From positions 186,001 through 250,000 of IMG/VR virus record IMGVR_UViG_3300027621_000003: a DNA stretch of 64,000 nucleotides, one strand, 5' to 3'. The translations under genes and the position numbers were made by a program. Below are positions 28,514 through 38,783 of this stretch, piece after piece (the stretch's first letter is position 1; every line of letters starts with the position of its first letter). The notes beneath the pieces were generated by a model. The model was not told where the DNA came from. It was given only the letters and a program-made list of their open reading frames with translations, and searched no databases. Origin of the DNA: a virus.

Positions 28514-29539
28514 TTATTTTTCAGATAACAAGAATTTATTTGATATTGCTTTGAAAGAAATTGTGTTATCCAAAGAACGAACCACAACACCTTCACGTTC
28601 TGCAAGTTTGTTTAAACGAGATTTGTCTTCAGCCAATTTTACCATCCCTTCAACCGTTTCAGGTAATAAGAATGCTACATCTAAAATTGGTACAGATAAT
28701 AATTCTAACTCATCCAATAAGATTAAGAAGTCATTAATGGTCATTCTTGTTTGTGTATCAATATCAAACCCATTGAAGAAATGAACTGTTTGTCCTTTGA
28801 TTTTGTATGGGTTACCTTGGATACCTTCACCAATCAACTCACCTTGTAAACAAATGTTTCCTTTGATTTTGAATTTGTTTTCCAAGTCAAGTTCACGGGC
28901 AACTTTCCAAAAAGTATTTCCTTCAGTTTCAAGTAATTCCAAATTACGAGAACATACACCAAACTCACCCTCATTCATATAAAATGTTGCAGATGAACCA
29001 TCCAACTTTTCAGTCATGTAAAACTGATGCTCAGATGTTAGTTTATATTCTTCATACTCCTTAACCAAGTTCTGAACCCTTTCTTCATCTGTCTTACGTA
29101 AGAAAGATGGGAACCCACCTTTTACTTTACCAGATAGTTCGGCAGGAATTGGTGGTTCGTATTTCACAATACCCAACATTTCAGTTACATCCAAACCTTC
29201 AGGTAAATCGTGTCCTGTTGCAAATTGTGTGATTGGAACAACACTGATTGGAAGAATAAGTCCTTGAGATAATTGACCACGAAGTCTAATTGTCTTCAAT
29301 CTGAAACCTTCTTGGTCACCCATTTTCTTGTAAGATGATTTACGTAAAAACTCAAACTCTTCCTTGATAGGTAAGAATGAATCAATCTCACAATACACCA
29401 CACTGTTTCCCACTTTATGTTCAACATCTTTGGCCACAACAACATTCCAACCACCTACAATGGCTATTTCAATTTTGTCTGCACCTTCAATAGGTCGGAT
29501 GTCAGTAATTTTTCTAATAGTTGCTAATTTTCTTTCCAT
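28514..29539 (-). CDS. RNA ligase (Rnl2/DRB0094-like)
   Basis: 341 aa. An N-terminal OB-like domain (residues 1-110; GADKIEIAIVGGWNVVVAKD) precedes the nucleotidyltransferase core: motif I EKLDGS (adenylated Lys), SRNLELLE, motif III LQGELIGEGIQGN, motif IV REGVVVR and motif V SFKAIS. It seals RNA ends through ligase-adenylate. ATG 29539 lies in a unit behind 29544-29726, sharing its promoter. Pairs with a second ligase at 33623. Confidence 0.85.
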   Translation of the reverse strand: MERKLATIRKITDIRPIEGADKIEIAIVGGWNVVVAKDVEHKVGNSVVYCEIDSFLPIKEEFEFLRKSSYKKMGDQEGFRLKTIRLRGQLSQGLILPISVVPITQFATGHDLPEGLDVTEMLGIVKYEPPIPAELSGKVKGGFPSFLRKTDEERVQNLVKEYEEYKLTSEHQFYMTEKLDGSSATFYMNEGEFGVCSRNLELLETEGNTFWKVARELDLENKFKIKGNICLQGELIGEGIQGNPYKIKGQTVHFFNGFDIDTQTRMTINDFLILLDELELLSVPILDVAFLLPETVEGMVKLAEDKSRLNKLAEREGVVVRSLDNTISFKAISNKFLLSEK

Positions 29540-29543
29540 ATTT

Positions 29544-29726
29544 TTAATCTTTTCCAAAAGTATAACCAATCATAAATCCGTGTATCCAATATGTCTTTTC
29601 ATTGTCATCACCTTGATTATCCATCTCATCCCAAGTTTGTTCCGCCAATTTTTGAACTTTGAACTTTGTGTCCTTTCTTTCTTCTACGGCTTCGGGACTC
29701 AAATCAACTAACGGTTTATTTTTCAT
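29544..29726 (-). CDS. small hypothetical protein (60 aa)
   Basis: MKNKPLVDLSPEAVEERKD... from ATG 29726 after TATCTTTG-N4 (29731-29738). Acidic helical protein, ends IHGFMIGYTFGKD. Precedes the RNA ligase gene by 4 nt, so co-transcribed. Unknown. Confidence 0.65.
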   Translation of the reverse strand: MKNKPLVDLSPEAVEERKDTKFKVQKLAEQTWDEMDNQGDDNEKTYWIHGFMIGYTFGKD

Positions 29727-33449: not shown

Positions 33450-33626
33450 TTAGTCCATGTCTTTTTCTTGGGAACCATTGGTTGTTGGACCAACTAACCC
33501 AGCCTTAATACAATCATGCATACCCTCTTCAAGGTCTTTGATTTTCTTTTCCATTGGTCTGTACCACTCAAAATAAGTTAGCACTATACCAATCCACGTA
33601 CCGATTACTATATATAATAATGTCAT
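33450..33626 (-). CDS. small membrane protein (58 aa)
   Basis: MTLLYIVIGTWIGIVLTYFEW... one N-terminal transmembrane segment, then an acidic helix. It starts in the stop of the RNA ligase gene (ATGA) and precedes the kinase gene by 1 nt, so it is inside the RNA-repair operon. A membrane partner for repair enzymes would be odd; role unknown. Confidence 0.55.
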   Translation of the reverse strand: MTLLYIVIGTWIGIVLTYFEWYRPMEKKIKDLEEGMHDCIKAGLVGPTTNGSQEKDMD

Positions 33627-34663
33627 AATTTTTTAAATTCAGGTTTTAATATATTCCATATCAATTTATCATAAGGTTTTCCATCCCACATTGCAAACAT
33701 GACCGCTCTATAAGGTGGATGTCCGTTTTCCATAACATGTTGAGCAAACTCTTTCTTGGTTGGTTCAACTTCTCTATCACTATACTTTCCATATCGGAAG
33801 TTATAGTGAGCCTTTCCACAATATTCATCTACTTGAAGGTATCCATAACTCAAATTACCAGCATATCCTTTTACTTTAGCATAGAACTCATCAGGTACAT
33901 CCTTCAAGAACTCATTGATGTCACCACCATTAGCCAAGAACTCCCATACACCAGTGGTAGATACATTTGTCATTATCTTATGAAGACGCAAATATTCCTC
34001 ACCTTTGATTTTCATTCGGTCTCCGTTAGAGAAACGAACAACGAACCCTTCAGTGTTCTGTTCAACTTTACCCTTTAATTCGGAATAATCCCTAATTCCA
34101 TCGTATTTTTTAACAATATCAAACCCTTCATACAATTCATTGTGTGGGAGTTCTTCACCAGTCTCAGTGTTGATTACACCAAGTAAAACCAAACGCTCCT
34201 CACCATTGTAGTCAACCACGATTCTGTTCTCAGGATAGATTATTTCAAACAAATAAGTGAACCTATCTACTATGATGTCTTGGTAGTTGTGCTTTATAGC
34301 AAAGTCGGTCATCCACTTTGATTGGTCAGAAGTAAATGAACCACGAGTGGCACATATCATCTCACCATTGTACTTGAACATGATTCCCAATGAACCATCC
34401 ATCTTATCAAATACCTCAAACTCAGATGTTGCTACGTGTTTGTTCTCCTCTAAGTTGAAGAACTTTTTGAATGGTCGGGCAACAACATTACCTCTGTTGT
34501 CTGTAACCAATCCACGACATGTCAATGTAACATCATCCCATAACTCACCGAACTGAACGTTAGGTGTATAGTTCCATATGGATAATGGCAAACTACGGTG
34601 TGTCTGTTTGAACAACAAACCCCTCTTTGTGTAGTCGTCTAATGTAACCATTGGAAATTTCAT
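33623..34663 (-). CDS. RNA ligase (T4 Rnl1-like)
   Basis: 346 aa from ATG 34663, 4 nt after TATCTTTG (34668-34675); five upstream codons only read the box (YLCTM). Motif I FDKMDGS (adenylated Lys at about residue 93), then MFKYNGEM...TRGSFTS, motif III FEIIYPENRIVVDY, motif IV EGFVVRF, motif V MKIKGEEYLRLHK. A Rnl1-type ligase with downstream kinase would repair tRNA cut by host anticodon nucleases, as in T4. First gene of the repair operon. Confidence 0.88.
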   Translation of the reverse strand: MKFPMVTLDDYTKRGLLFKQTHRSLPLSIWNYTPNVQFGELWDDVTLTCRGLVTDNRGNVVARPFKKFFNLEENKHVATSEFEVFDKMDGSLGIMFKYNGEMICATRGSFTSDQSKWMTDFAIKHNYQDIIVDRFTYLFEIIYPENRIVVDYNGEERLVLLGVINTETGEELPHNELYEGFDIVKKYDGIRDYSELKGKVEQNTEGFVVRFSNGDRMKIKGEEYLRLHKIMTNVSTTGVWEFLANGGDINEFLKDVPDEFYAKVKGYAGNLSYGYLQVDEYCGKAHYNFRYGKYSDREVEPTKKEFAQHVMENGHPPYRAVMFAMWDGKPYDKLIWNILKPEFKKL

Positions 34664-34705
34664 AGTACAAAGATACAATTAATTTTTGATTATTTCATTT
34701 TTATT

Positions 34706-35274: not shown

Positions 35275-36072
35275 TTAAAATATTTTAATTTGACTATTTT
35301 TTTTATCGTAATCTTCAAGTCTTTTTATTGACATATCAATATACTCCTGATGTAATTCAATACCCAAACAATCTCTATTTAATTTTTTTGCCGATAACAA
35401 TGTAGTACCAGAACCTAAAAAAGGGTCCAATATCATATCACCAACAAAAGAATAATATTTAACAATTTTATCTGAAAGTTCTTCAGGATATGGTGCTAAA
35501 TGTTTTGAATGAGTTTCAGGGTTTATATACCAAACATTACTTCTTTCATATTCTTCAGTTACTAACGATTCTTTTAAAGTATCACCTGAGTATGAACGAA
35601 CTATTTTATCAATTAAAAAATTTGCCGGCTTTTGAAAGACAAATATTGTTTCTGACACTAAATTTGGTTTATAAGCAACAGGTTTTCTGTGTTGGAAAAA
35701 ACCACCATTTCTATTTATTGCCGAACCTTCTGGTTTAACCCACACGATATCTTCAAGATATTTCCAACCAATTTTTTCCATTATTGAAAAAAAATGAAAC
35801 GGTATTGGTAGTCTTTTACTTTCTGAGTTTCTATTGGCTCTTTGTACTATTACTGGTGATAAATTTACCACACACATACGACCATCTTTAGTTACTCTAA
35901 AAACTTCTAAGAAGACTTTTTCTAAAAAAATTAAATATTCATCGTATGTTGGCCATTGAGAATATGATTTTGCATTATAATATGGTGGTGATGTCCATGT
36001 TAAATGGATTGATGAATCTAATATTTCTTTTAACTTTAATTCACAATCACCTAAAATTATTTCATATTTCAT
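35275..36072 (-). CDS. DNA methyltransferase (beta class, N4/N6)
   Basis: 265 aa. Motif IV TSPPYYNAKS is at about residues 27-36, before the AdoMet motif DPFLGSGTTLLSA near residue 215: the IV-then-I order is that of beta-class amino-methyltransferases. Target-recognition part lies between. It overlaps the HNH gene upstream by 1 nt, so the two form a possible restriction-modification pair. Sequence specificity not predictable. Confidence 0.9.
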   Translation of the reverse strand: MKYEIILGDCELKLKEILDSSIHLTWTSPPYYNAKSYSQWPTYDEYLIFLEKVFLEVFRVTKDGRMCVVNLSPVIVQRANRNSESKRLPIPFHFFSIMEKIGWKYLEDIVWVKPEGSAINRNGGFFQHRKPVAYKPNLVSETIFVFQKPANFLIDKIVRSYSGDTLKESLVTEEYERSNVWYINPETHSKHLAPYPEELSDKIVKYYSFVGDMILDPFLGSGTTLLSAKKLNRDCLGIELHQEYIDMSIKRLEDYDKKNSQIKIF

Positions 36073-36497
36073 TAATTAAATTTTCTACCTGTTGGTTTAG
36101 TATTTGAACAGTCACCTTTTTCAATACTTTTACGATTATGACAAAGTTTACAATATGTTCTTACATTGTAAATATCATTATTGTTATGATTACCATCTAT
36201 ATGGTCTAAATCCAAACATCCTATTTCAAATCCAAACCAACTTTCTTTATTAGGTACTGGACATTTAAAACCTAAATGACCATCAATGTTCTCACAATAT
36301 TTTTTCTTATGAATTGTAATTCCTTCTCGGATTATACCTTTTTTTCTATCATTTTGACATTTAGAACATTCCGTTTTAAATGACCAATTAGACCAACTTC
36401 TTACAGCAACTTTATTTTCACAACCAACATTAATACATTTTGGTAATGTATTACCCATTTCATAAAATTTACGTTTTTGAATCTCAGAAATTTTCAT
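36072..36497 (-). CDS. HNH endonuclease
   Basis: 141 aa from ATG 36497, 4 nt after TATCTTTG (36502-36509). N-terminal zinc-ribbon-like Cys pairs (NVGCENK, CSKCQN) and a C-terminal HNH core: LDLDHIDGNHNNND...NVRTYCKLCHNRKS. Coupled to the methyltransferase gene. It may be the nuclease partner of a modification pair or a homing nuclease. Confidence 0.85.
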   Translation of the reverse strand: MKISEIQKRKFYEMGNTLPKCINVGCENKVAVRSWSNWSFKTECSKCQNDRKKGIIREGITIHKKKYCENIDGHLGFKCPVPNKESWFGFEIGCLDLDHIDGNHNNNDIYNVRTYCKLCHNRKSIEKGDCSNTKPTGRKFN

Positions 36498-36570: not shown

Positions 36571-37308
36571 TTAGTTTTCCACATAAAATTCAAAACCTTG
36601 TAAACCAAAGTATTTAATGTGATTATTTATTCTTCTTACTTTTTCAACATTACTAGTGTTTGTCCAAACAACATAATTTCCAACCCAAACACTACAATTG
36701 TTCATTTTATTCTCTTCATAATCAAATCCAAGTTCTTCAATTGAAGTTGATATGTGTGGTTCACGAGTATCCAAATTATCCCATCCAACAATTTCAGCAA
36801 TCTTTGTCATACCCAAAACAAAAGTTTCTTTAGCATTTTCTTGAGTCATGTCTTCACCATTTAATTTAAAAACTACTCTTGACGGACTGTTACGTTTAAT
36901 AACACTAGTCATCTCACCTTTATCATTTTGTGAAATTGTTTTGTCCTCAGCGATTTTTTGAATCATATCAATTTCAACGGCCCCCATTAACTTGGTCAAT
37001 TTGCTAACACGACTATTTAATATTTCAATATCTGAAACATCAAACCATTCTGTAGTAATATTACGTCTATAATCGTACTGTTTTTCTACTCTATAATCTT
37101 CAAAACAAGTATGTAAAATACTTTCCAATTGTGACATTTCTTCAGTTTCAAAAACACGAACAAATGTTACATCAAAAGGTAAATGGGTAGAATTTAATTG
37201 GGTCTCTCTCAATTTATATTGAATTGATTTACCAATTTTGTGATACCCGTTTACAAACTTACCACCATGGTCAATAATTCGTGCGATGTATACATATCCT
37301 TTATCCAT
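36571..37308 (-). CDS. T5orf172-type GIY-YIG-like protein (245 aa)
   Basis: MDKGYVYIARIIDHG from ATG 37308 after TATCTTTG-N4 (37313-37320); a longer frame upstream reads the box as YLCYM. Residues 4-75 (GYVYIAR...YHKIGKSIQYKLRETQLNSTHLPFDVTFVRVFE...LESILHTCFEDYRV) match the T5orf172/MUG113 domain related to GIY-YIG nucleases. The C-terminal 150 residues are unrecognised. Could be a DNA-binding or nuclease protein. Confidence 0.8.
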   Translation of the reverse strand: MDKGYVYIARIIDHGGKFVNGYHKIGKSIQYKLRETQLNSTHLPFDVTFVRVFETEEMSQLESILHTCFEDYRVEKQYDYRRNITTEWFDVSDIEILNSRVSKLTKLMGAVEIDMIQKIAEDKTISQNDKGEMTSVIKRNSPSRVVFKLNGEDMTQENAKETFVLGMTKIAEIVGWDNLDTREPHISTSIEELGFDYEENKMNNCSVWVGNYVVWTNTSNVEKVRRINNHIKYFGLQGFEFYVEN

Positions 37309-37346: not shown

Positions 37347-37386
37347 TAAAAAAAAGAAACCCCAAATAATTTCTTATTCGGGGTCG
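37347..37386 (-). terminator. terminator of the structured RNA
   Basis: ACCCCGAATAA/TTATTTGGGGT arms followed by C and a run of U. It ends the RNA and is followed at once by the promoter of 36571-37308. Confidence 0.85.
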
Positions 37387-38250
37387 GACATAGGATACTA
37401 TCCTATGTGGGGTTTTGGCTAAAACGATGAGATTACTCGTTTAGTTGACCTGTCTTTTGTAGAGATTATACCCGACTAAGGTTTCCTCTCGTATCCACTA
37501 ATGTTGCCATCAGTATCAAGTCATCACCGATTGTTTACGACAATCACACGTTTCGGTCAAACTTACTCAACTATTACTTGCCTCTATAGAATCTTGCGAA
37601 CTCTCTAAACCCGTGCCCAGGTACTAGGACTTTCTTAGTCAAAACTGAAGGACTTGGGGTCCTGTCAATTTCCTTGTTGGTATTTCTACCCAAGGAATTA
37701 GGTGACTTTCAGTTTAACCGCTCAGAGACTTTTCCTTTTCTGTAGTTTATTTTTTCATAATAAATCAACATAGTGAGTGTGATGAAAGATGAGCTCTGAG
37801 GTGGATAGCTTCTCTTTTGAAGAAGTAAATACCACTCACCTTTCTGTAATCCGCCAAGACTACGACTTATCTTGATATCGTTGTGTCACCACTTGGATAC
37901 CTGTGATAAATTGGTGACCTAGCCCTACATCCACTTGGCGGCGGAGTCGAACCATTCCCTTTACCTTTTCCTATTGATGTCTCCATCTCAACCCTGACAC
38001 CTCACGTGGTCAAAATAAATAACTTCTCTCAGCTGTTGCCCATAAGAAATCATTCGTAGGTAATTTGTTTAGTTGTGAGCCACTTTCGTGACACCGAGAT
38101 ATTTGTACCGTTGAGTACTTTCTCCCCTATAGTCCCGTTACCGGGGTTATCTTAATCGACGCTAAACCGCCGAATACAAACCAAACTTCAATTTAAGGGG
38201 GTGAAGTTGGCGTTTCAAAGAACGTTTTGAGATGTTATTCTCAATTGTTT
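37347..38250 (-). ncRNA. large structured noncoding RNA (~900 nt), GOLLD-like candidate
   Basis: No credible ORF exists, yet the unit has its own promoter (38253-38284) and terminator (37347-37386) on the minus strand. Many helices are visible: TTCCTTG/CAAGGAA at 37670-37696; CCGCCAAG/CTTGGCGG at 37851-37858 and 37934-37941; GTCACCA/TGGTGAC at 37885-37918; ACATAGGA/TCCTATGT at 37388-37408; and GNRA tetraloop hairpins, GAAA at 38081-38090 and GUAA at 38134-38145. Its GC content is above that of neighbouring genes. Length, phage context and ornate folding fit the GOLLD class of large phage RNAs; ROOL and OLE are usually shorter. I cannot recall the GOLLD consensus well enough to confirm, so a new class is also possible. 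Confidence 0.7.
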
Positions 38251-38252
38251 CA

Positions 38253-38284
38253 CAAAGTTAAGACTATTTTTTCAAACTGTCAAA
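38253..38284 (-). promoter_or_regulatory. promoter of the structured RNA (TTTG-N20-TAACTTTG)
   Basis: TTTG at 38281-38284 and TAACTTTG at 38253-38260, 20 nt apart, match the Bacteroidota sigma consensus on the minus strand. Transcription would start near 38245-38250. Confidence 0.8.
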
Positions 38285-38375
38285 TAAACTTTGTTTTTTT
38301 TATTTGGTAAGTAATAAATATATCCTTATTTACCAAAGTTATAAAAACATAACATCTTTTTTTTCAGTTGTCAAA

Positions 38376-38783
38376 TCATTTTAGAACATTTTTTAAATAT
38401 TCTTTCAAATTCTCACCGAGTGGTTCAGGTAACTCATCAATTGAAAAGTATCCACACTCTGAATGTTCTTCCCCGTACTCAGCATTTTCCAAGTCAGGGT
38501 GAATAGGCTTGTCAACCTCATTTAAGAATACATACATTACTGAAGATTGTTTTGTTCCTTTACGGTTCATTCTACTCATCACCCCAAGGAATTCTAAGTC
38601 ACCCGTTAATTCTTTACCAGTCTCTTCATAGAACTCACGATGTGCCGTGTCAATGATTTCTTCATCTGGTTCTACTTTACCACCAGGAATACTCCATTCC
38701 CCTGAGTAAGTTTCAACATTACTCCTTTTACACAAAAGACATTTGTTTCCTGATTTAACGATTACTCCGGCTGATTTCTTCAT
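38376..38783 (-). CDS. Nudix hydrolase
   Basis: 135 aa MutT-type protein. The Nudix box GGKVEPDEEIIDTAHREFYEETGKEL has G-x5-E-x7-REU-x-EE-x-GU intact at about residues 33-55. A C-K-L-C pair is near the start (KCLLCKR). Nudix enzymes hydrolyse nucleoside diphosphates linked to another group: damaged dNTPs, RNA caps or signalling nucleotides. Divergent from the DUF192 gene. Substrate not predictable. Confidence 0.9.
   Translation of the reverse strand: MKKSAGVIVKSGNKCLLCKRSNVETYSGEWSIPGGKVEPDEEIIDTAHREFYEETGKELTGDLEFLGVMSRMNRKGTKQSSVMYVFLNEVDKPIHPDLENAEYGEEHSECGYFSIDELPEPLGENLKEYLKNVLK

What the first reader, a model, noticed from the sequence alone, without database searches (positions are those of the whole stretch)
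37347..38284. Stand-alone ~900-nt structured RNA with its own promoter and terminator
The 1.07-kb gap between 37308 and 38376 has no ORF, an intact TTTG-N20-TAACTTTG promoter, a terminator, two GNRA hairpins and several long-range helices. Size, ornate fold and phage context fit GOLLD-type RNAs, which some recent structural work reports as forming large symmetric RNA assemblies (recalled, not checked). A UUCGACU T-loop-like element lies at 37936-37956. It may also be a new class.
Basis: partly seen in the sequence, partly recalled or inferred. Interest (0 to 1): 0.85.

Follow-up and report, generated by a model that had tools for sequence, protein, structure and literature searches.

The report
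Phage GOLLD RNA with ribosomal-type leader
The gap in this giant phage genome encodes a GOLLD RNA, a known large RNA that in its studied form assembles into hollow cages; what is new is that its transcript begins with the same short signal (boxA) that bacteria use to transcribe their ribosomal RNA without interruption, which suggests the phage borrows the host's ribosomal-RNA transcription machinery to make it.

Summary
The feature is real and its class is known. The minus strand 37844-37424 matches Rfam GOLLD (RF02032) end to end at 309.6 bits (cut-off 150). The 5' half, outside the Rfam model, is homologous to the 5' domain of other phage GOLLDs and covaries strongly (37 of 78 pairs with changes on both sides; 98% of cells paired against 31-47% when slid). 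Promoter and terminator are present as described. The T-loop-like element is part of a covarying 5'-domain stem, not a tRNA. New is the leader: promoter, short covarying hairpin, then an rRNA-type boxA (GTTCTTTGAA, 38223-38214). All 14 full-length leaders of this clade, and 3 of 3 GOLLDs found later, carry it; Bacteroidota 16S leaders show the same order. In this phage the best boxA sites sit before its tmRNA, GOLLD and two tRNA operons. In an unrelated 424-kb GOLLD phage the only three perfect matches to the gamma-proteobacterial boxA consensus precede a tRNA-Met, an unknown structured RNA and GOLLD. I infer that the phage uses host Nus antitermination for its long untranslated RNAs. Cage assembly is inferred from the published homologue; GOLLD's role stays open. 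No paper in the library searched mentions both boxA and GOLLD.

The parts
38346..38374 (-). possible upstream tandem promoter P1 (TTGACA-17-TATGTT), just after the NUDIX stop codon
   Evidence: 10 of 12; tandem promoters also seen in relatives L363, L547, L548, L549; weak on its own (8 such sites in the 2-kb region, 6.0 expected)
38253..38284 (-). Bacteroidota-type promoter P2 TTTG-N20-TAACTTTG
   Evidence: exact sequence; aligned TTGAC...TAnCTTT promoter in all complete leaders of the clade
38227..38244 (-). 5' leader hairpin UUGAGA-AUAACA-UCUCAA just after the inferred start (~38246); boxB-like position
   Evidence: hairpin predicted in 12 of 14 relatives with different stem sequences (AUCAG/CUGAU, CGGGG/CCCCG, GUCAG/CUGAC ...)
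38214..38223 (-). boxA GTTCTTTGAA (rRNA-type Nus-factor site)
   Evidence: matrix from Bacteroidota 16S leaders: 15.4 bits, 3rd best of 589,408 positions in the phage genome; the only 7-mer shared by all 16 leaders
38181..38210 (-). optional leader hairpin with C-rich loop (CCAACTTCA / TGAAGTTTGG)
   Evidence: sequence; similar hairpin with other stem sequence in L357, L362, L363, L374, L380; absent in L372, L375, L394
37845..38173 (-). GOLLD 5' domain (cap domain in the published structure)
   Evidence: alignment A1, 15 sequences; 37 of 78 pairs with double changes; slid controls 31-47% paired
37424..37844 (-). GOLLD 3' domain (Rfam RF02032, full model)
   Evidence: 309.6 bits, model 1-416/416
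37728..37793 (-). variable AT-rich linker (interior of the cage in the published structure); no tRNA here
   Evidence: closed by CTCAGAG 37800-37794 / CTCTGAG 37727-37721, complementary in 15 of 15 sequences with four different versions; ARAGORN none
37351..37385 (-). intrinsic terminator (12-bp stem, T tail)
   Evidence: terminator also in relatives
38376..38783 (-). NUDIX hydrolase gene directly upstream; conserved synteny, not claimed as a functional partner
   Evidence: Pfam PF00293 1.2e-22; homologue upstream of GOLLD in 14 other loci

Best explanation
It is a GOLLD RNA of a roughly 295-kb phage, probably of a Bacteroidota host. A Bacteroidota-type promoter starts a ~900-nt untranslated transcript. 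Its first ~35 nt hold a hairpin and a boxA; host NusB-NusE (S10) bind this boxA and, with NusG/NusA, turn RNA polymerase into the Rho-resistant form used on rRNA, so that the long non-coding RNA is finished up to its intrinsic terminator and can fold in an orderly way. The RNA then folds into a 5' cap domain and a 3' ring domain and, as for the homologue env-38, assembles into a multimeric (14-mer) cage with the AT-rich linker inside. The same host-type boxA is placed on the phage's tmRNA and two main tRNA operons, so GOLLD belongs to a set of phage stable RNAs made by the host's rRNA antitermination route. Shown by sequence: class, domains, covariation, promoter, boxA, terminator, the other boxA sites. 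Inferred: Nus-factor binding and antitermination (about 0.8), cage assembly (about 0.85), and a translation-related role of the cage, such as holding or shielding phage tRNAs or ribosomal components (about 0.3).
For: GOLLD: RF02032 309.6 bits; homologous 5' domain in relatives with covariation 98.1% paired, 37 pairs with double changes, 0 of 500 shuffles. boxA: a matrix built only from Bacteroidota 16S leaders scores the GOLLD site 15.4, expected 0.0007 such hits per leader. Every complete leader of the clade (14 distinct) has GTTCTTT after a promoter, as do all 3 GOLLDs found afterwards, one of them divergent. GTTCTTT is the only 7-mer in all 16 leaders, next non-overlapping 5 of 16. Bacteroidota 16S leaders show promoter-hairpin-GTTCTTTGAA. 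In the phage genome, 4 of the 6 sites scoring 15 or more precede the tmRNA, GOLLD and two tRNA operons. In the unrelated 424-kb phage G127 the published consensus GYTCTTTAANA (PMC5725501) has exactly 3 matches, before a tRNA-Met, an unknown structured RNA and GOLLD. Cage: PMC12286853.
Against: No RNA-seq, Nus-binding or assembly data for this RNA. The clade is largely one phage lineage by synteny, so its leaders are not fully independent. Among 14 GOLLDs outside the clade only two carry a clear host-type boxA in the leader (L388, L391) and L371 a poorer one. Two clade members keep only GTTCTTT with a degraded 3' half (L362 9.9, L380 5.7 bits). In G000 one of the three strict promoters with a downstream boxA core (126077+) is not assigned to a stable RNA, and smaller tRNA units lack boxA. 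The subunit number of this RNA could differ from 14.
Confidence: 0.8

Rival explanations
1. GOLLD RNA as above, but the GTTCTTT block is not a Nus-factor site; it is a phage-specific motif, a processing signal, or part of the GOLLD fold.
For: The motif is short, and the clade leaders share a phage lineage.
Against: A matrix trained only on host 16S leaders finds it; its type follows the host (GTTCTTTGAA in the Bacteroidota-type phages; GCTCTTTAAAA/GTTCTTTAAAA with sigma70 promoters in G127); it also precedes the tmRNA and tRNA operons; distance to the 5' domain varies from 22 to 99 nt, which argues against a fixed structural role.
Confidence: 0.15
2. The boxA-bearing, abundant RNA acts as a decoy: it titrates NusB/S10 away from host rRNA operons and so lowers host ribosome synthesis, with the cage as a stable carrier.
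For: The boxA is on the transcript; a ~1-kb orf-less RNA is the most abundant transcript of phage ICP1 (PMC7567579); ribosomes are reported to bind GOLLD in pull-downs (PMC12286853).
Against: A boxA on tmRNA and tRNA operons is more simply explained by antitermination; ICP1's RNA has neither a GOLLD match nor a boxA; no expression data here.
Confidence: 0.05
3. A new RNA class, or a tRNA-like RNA with a T-loop.
Against: Full-length match to RF02032; the element sits in covarying 5'-domain helices and is not conserved as UUCGACU; no tRNA called.
Confidence: 0.01

Closest known systems
GOLLD RNA (Rfam RF02032; env-38 structure, PMC12286853)
   Same: Full 3' model matched; 5' domain homologous within the clade of relatives; phage location; variable linker; terminator. 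Several relatives have a tRNA-Met just upstream, as described for env-38.
   Different: No tRNA in the linker or within 3 kb; the phage's tRNA island (28 tRNAs) is about 67-93 kb away; leader with rRNA-type boxA not found described in the papers searched.
ROOL RNA (Rfam RF03087)
   Same: Large phage/plasmid RNA forming a cage (PMC12286853).
   Different: Different sequence and model: no ROOL match in the window; the L. salivarius ROOL (130.4 bits) has no boxA in its 5.2-kb surroundings.
rRNA leader boxA / Nus antitermination, and boxA before CRISPR arrays (PMC5725501, PMC7862264)
   Same: Order promoter-hairpin-boxA and boxA sequence as in Bacteroidota 16S leaders; used on a long non-coding RNA.
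   Different: Here on a phage GOLLD RNA, a phage tmRNA and phage tRNA operons; not tested biochemically.
ICP1 ~1-kb orf-less abundant transcript (PMC7567579)
   Same: Stand-alone ~0.8-1 kb phage non-coding RNA away from tRNAs.
   Different: No GOLLD match and no boxA in the ICP1 gap.

Membership tests
GOLLD RNA (RF02032) | Score above the Rfam gathering cut-off over the conserved 3' region | tested here: met
   309.6 bits against 150, positions 1-416/416
GOLLD RNA (RF02032) | Less conserved structured 5' region, total length over ~800 nt | tested here: met
   covarying 5' domain 38173-37845; promoter-to-terminator about 897 nt
GOLLD RNA (RF02032) | Covariation of stems in homologues | tested here: met
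   5' domain: 37 of 78 pairs with double changes, 0/500 shuffles; linker-closing helix 15/15 complementary in four versions
GOLLD RNA (RF02032) | Phage or prophage location | tested here: met
   virus record of 294,914 bases; RNA ligase / tail-fibre-attachment protein and other phage families nearby
GOLLD RNA (RF02032) | Often adjacent to, or containing, tRNA genes (usual, not obligatory) | tested here: not met
   no tRNA in the 64-kb window; island at 130.6-156 kb of the phage, GOLLD at 223.4-224.3 kb
GOLLD RNA (RF02032) | Homo-oligomeric nanocage (14-mer) | not testable with these tools
   known only for env-38
rRNA-type boxA antitermination signal | Sequence match to the host's rRNA boxA | tested here: met
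   15.4 bits, rank 3 of 589,408 positions
rRNA-type boxA antitermination signal | Located in the transcribed leader downstream of promoter and hairpin | tested here: met
rRNA-type boxA antitermination signal | Binds NusB-S10 and suppresses Rho termination | not testable with these tools
   needs experiment
ROOL RNA (RF03087) | Match to the ROOL model | tested here: not met
   GOLLD is the only match over cut-off in the window, and no ROOL match up to E=1 in the gap

The most novel reading that the evidence does not exclude
GOLLD cage RNAs, together with phage tmRNA and tRNA operons, form a phage stable-RNA regulon that uses host-matched rRNA boxA signals, so that the host's Nus-factor rRNA transcription and folding machinery makes and helps to fold the phage's large RNAs; this occurs in phages of at least two unrelated host groups.
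Probability: 0.7. Interest if true: 0.65.

Novelty: new member of a known kind. Interest (0 to 1): 0.52.

Why it matters
GOLLD forms one of the few known natural RNA-only cages and its function is open. An rRNA-type boxA on its leader gives a concrete, testable link between GOLLD and the host's rRNA machinery (Nus factors, S10), explains how a ~900-nt untranslated RNA could escape Rho, and groups GOLLD with tmRNA and tRNAs as phage stable RNAs. It also makes the leader a place to switch GOLLD expression off without touching the folded RNA. That this GOLLD lies about 67 kb or more from any phage tRNA gene argues against an obligatory cis link to tRNAs.

Tried and rejected
blastn of the gap against annotated phages: no match. 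tRNA mimic / T-loop: rejected. New class: rejected. ROOL sharing the boxA leader: the L. salivarius example has no G[CT]TCTTT[AG]A. ICP1 large ncRNA as a GOLLD or boxA case: negative. A conserved cargo or partner gene next to GOLLD: only synteny of one phage lineage (NUDIX in 15 loci, DHH-like in 20) with variable downstream genes, so no partner is claimed. GTTCTTTGA alone is too short to be informative genome-wide; position after a promoter and the full matrix are needed. Assigning bridges B6-B10 of the published 14-mer residue by residue was not done, because the env-38 sequence and numbering are not held here.

Full report
What is there. The window is bases 186001-250000 of a virus record of 294,914 bases. 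The gap between the NUDIX gene (38376-38783, minus) and the T5orf172/MUG113 gene (36571-37308, minus) holds a single Rfam match over cut-off: GOLLD, RF02032, minus strand 37844-37424, 309.6 bits, complete model. The Rfam model covers only the conserved 3' region. The 5' half of this RNA aligns with the region upstream of the GOLLD core in many IMG/VR contigs. An identical copy lies in IMGVR_UViG_3300027772_000006, and a 98.8% copy of one end in a lake contig binned as 'uncultured Bacteroidetes'.

Structure is under selection. On 15 non-identical sequences the consensus 5'-domain structure has 98.1% of cells paired, 37 of 78 pairs with changes on both sides and a covariation score of 0.457 against 0.199 in shuffles; sliding the partners drops pairing to 31-47%. 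Part of that excess over the slid versions is expected because the structure was predicted from the same alignment; the double changes are the stronger evidence. The helix that closes the variable linker (CTCAGAG/CTCTGAG here) is complementary in all 15 sequences in four different versions. The T-loop-like UUCGACU is the strand of a covarying 5'-domain stem.

Relation to tRNAs. In the sampled GOLLDs outside this clade, six carry a called tRNA gene inside the linker, of five isotypes (Gln, Cys, Pro, Arg, Asn twice), and most of these lie in tRNA islands; several closer relatives have a tRNA-Met upstream. The window GOLLD has neither. The phage does encode 28 tRNAs, but at 130.6-156 kb of the record, while GOLLD is at 223.4-224.3 kb. 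So linkage to tRNA genes is not needed in this phage.

The leader. Between promoter and 5' domain all complete leaders of the clade carry GTTCTTT, mostly ACGTTCTTTGAAA, and 12 of 14 have a short hairpin before it, with different stem sequences. This is the only 7-mer present in all 16 leaders compared; the best non-overlapping 7-mer is in 5. The published E. coli-type boxA consensus is GYTCTTTAANA (PMC5725501) and a CRISPR-array boxA is GTTCTTTAAAA (PMC7862264). I fetched 16S rRNA loci from Bacteroidota genomes: 21 of the 27 examined have GTTCTTT, usually GTTCTTTGAA, upstream of 16S, typically after a TAnnTTTG promoter and a hairpin; several of the six without it have little leader sequence on the contig. 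A matrix built only from those 16S leaders ranks the GOLLD site third among 589,408 positions of the phage genome, both strands; 0.0007 such hits are expected per leader.

The same signal elsewhere in the phage. Four of the six sites that score 15 or more precede stable RNAs: a tmRNA (G000 127636-128021, RF00023 63.7 bits; ARAGORN did not call it), GOLLD, and two tRNA operons starting at 140079 and 133137. Of 39 strict Bacteroidota-type promoters in the genome, three have a boxA core within 100 nt (0.4 expected): GOLLD, a tRNA operon, and one at 126077 that I could not assign.

Independent tests. Three GOLLDs found afterwards by another pattern all have promoter plus boxA, including a divergent one in a 152-kb phage; two of the three are near-identical. 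In an unrelated 424-kb GOLLD phage (G127) the gamma-proteobacterial consensus has exactly three perfect matches in the whole record: before a tRNA-Met, before a structured RNA of unknown family, and, after a sigma70-like promoter and a hairpin, 676 nt upstream of the GOLLD core. The pattern read backwards occurs six times, so the count alone is not significant; the positions are. In G148 ACGTTCTTTGACAAAT follows a promoter upstream of GOLLD. Outside the clade most GOLLDs show no recognisable boxA with these motifs; ROOL of L. salivarius and the ICP1 RNA are negative.

How it most likely works. Shown by sequence: a GOLLD RNA with its own promoter, hairpin, boxA, two covarying domains, linker and terminator. 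Inferred from established biology of boxA (NusB-S10 binding, Rho-resistant elongation on rRNA): the phage makes this long untranslated RNA with the host's rRNA antitermination machinery. Inferred from PMC12286853 for a homologue: assembly into a cage with the linker inside. What the cage does is not known; an earlier report quoted in PMC7567579 says GOLLD was dispensable for phage production in one Lactobacillus prophage. Grouping with tmRNA and tRNAs favours a translation-related role, but I give that only about 0.3.

Verdict.

Noticed in passing
G000 127636-128021 (L221 7636-8021): The phage encodes its own tmRNA (RF00023, 63.7 bits) that ARAGORN misses, with a host-type boxA just before it (best boxA score in the genome, 21.2).
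   Followed up: partly
L551 1501-1840 (G127 214778-215117): Structured RNA of about 330 nt with its own promoter, hairpin, boxA and a long terminal helix next to GOLLD in a 424-kb phage; no Rfam match, MFE -125.6 kcal/mol for 360 nt. Possibly a new RNA family.
   Followed up: partly
L381, L384, L387, L388, L389, L391: tRNA genes of five isotypes sit at the same place inside the GOLLD linker (+63 to +142 of the core) in different phages.
   Followed up: partly
L551 1954-2041; L388 about -600 to -500 from the core: tRNA-like element with GCGTAGGCCACGC and an odd anticodon call lies between boxA and GOLLD in G127, and a similar one in G148.
   Followed up: no
G127 167864-168218 (L393): A second, weak GOLLD-like match (40.2 bits) in the same 424-kb phage.
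   Followed up: no
G131 336908-337433 (L392): GOLLD (188 bits) in a 607,744-bp viral contig.
   Followed up: no
window 28514-29569 and 33623-34678 (minus): Two RNA ligases (PHROG 968 and T4 Rnl1-like PHROG 562) near GOLLD in a phage with 28 tRNAs; possible tRNA repair.
   Followed up: no
window 38376-38783 (minus): NUDIX hydrolase directly upstream of GOLLD is conserved in 15 loci of the lineage, and a DHH-like protein further upstream in 20.
   Followed up: partly
window 36571-37308 and 36072-36497 (minus): T5orf172/MUG113 GIY-YIG-like protein and a weak HNH endonuclease match downstream of GOLLD; relatives have other downstream genes, so these may be mobile insertions.
   Followed up: no
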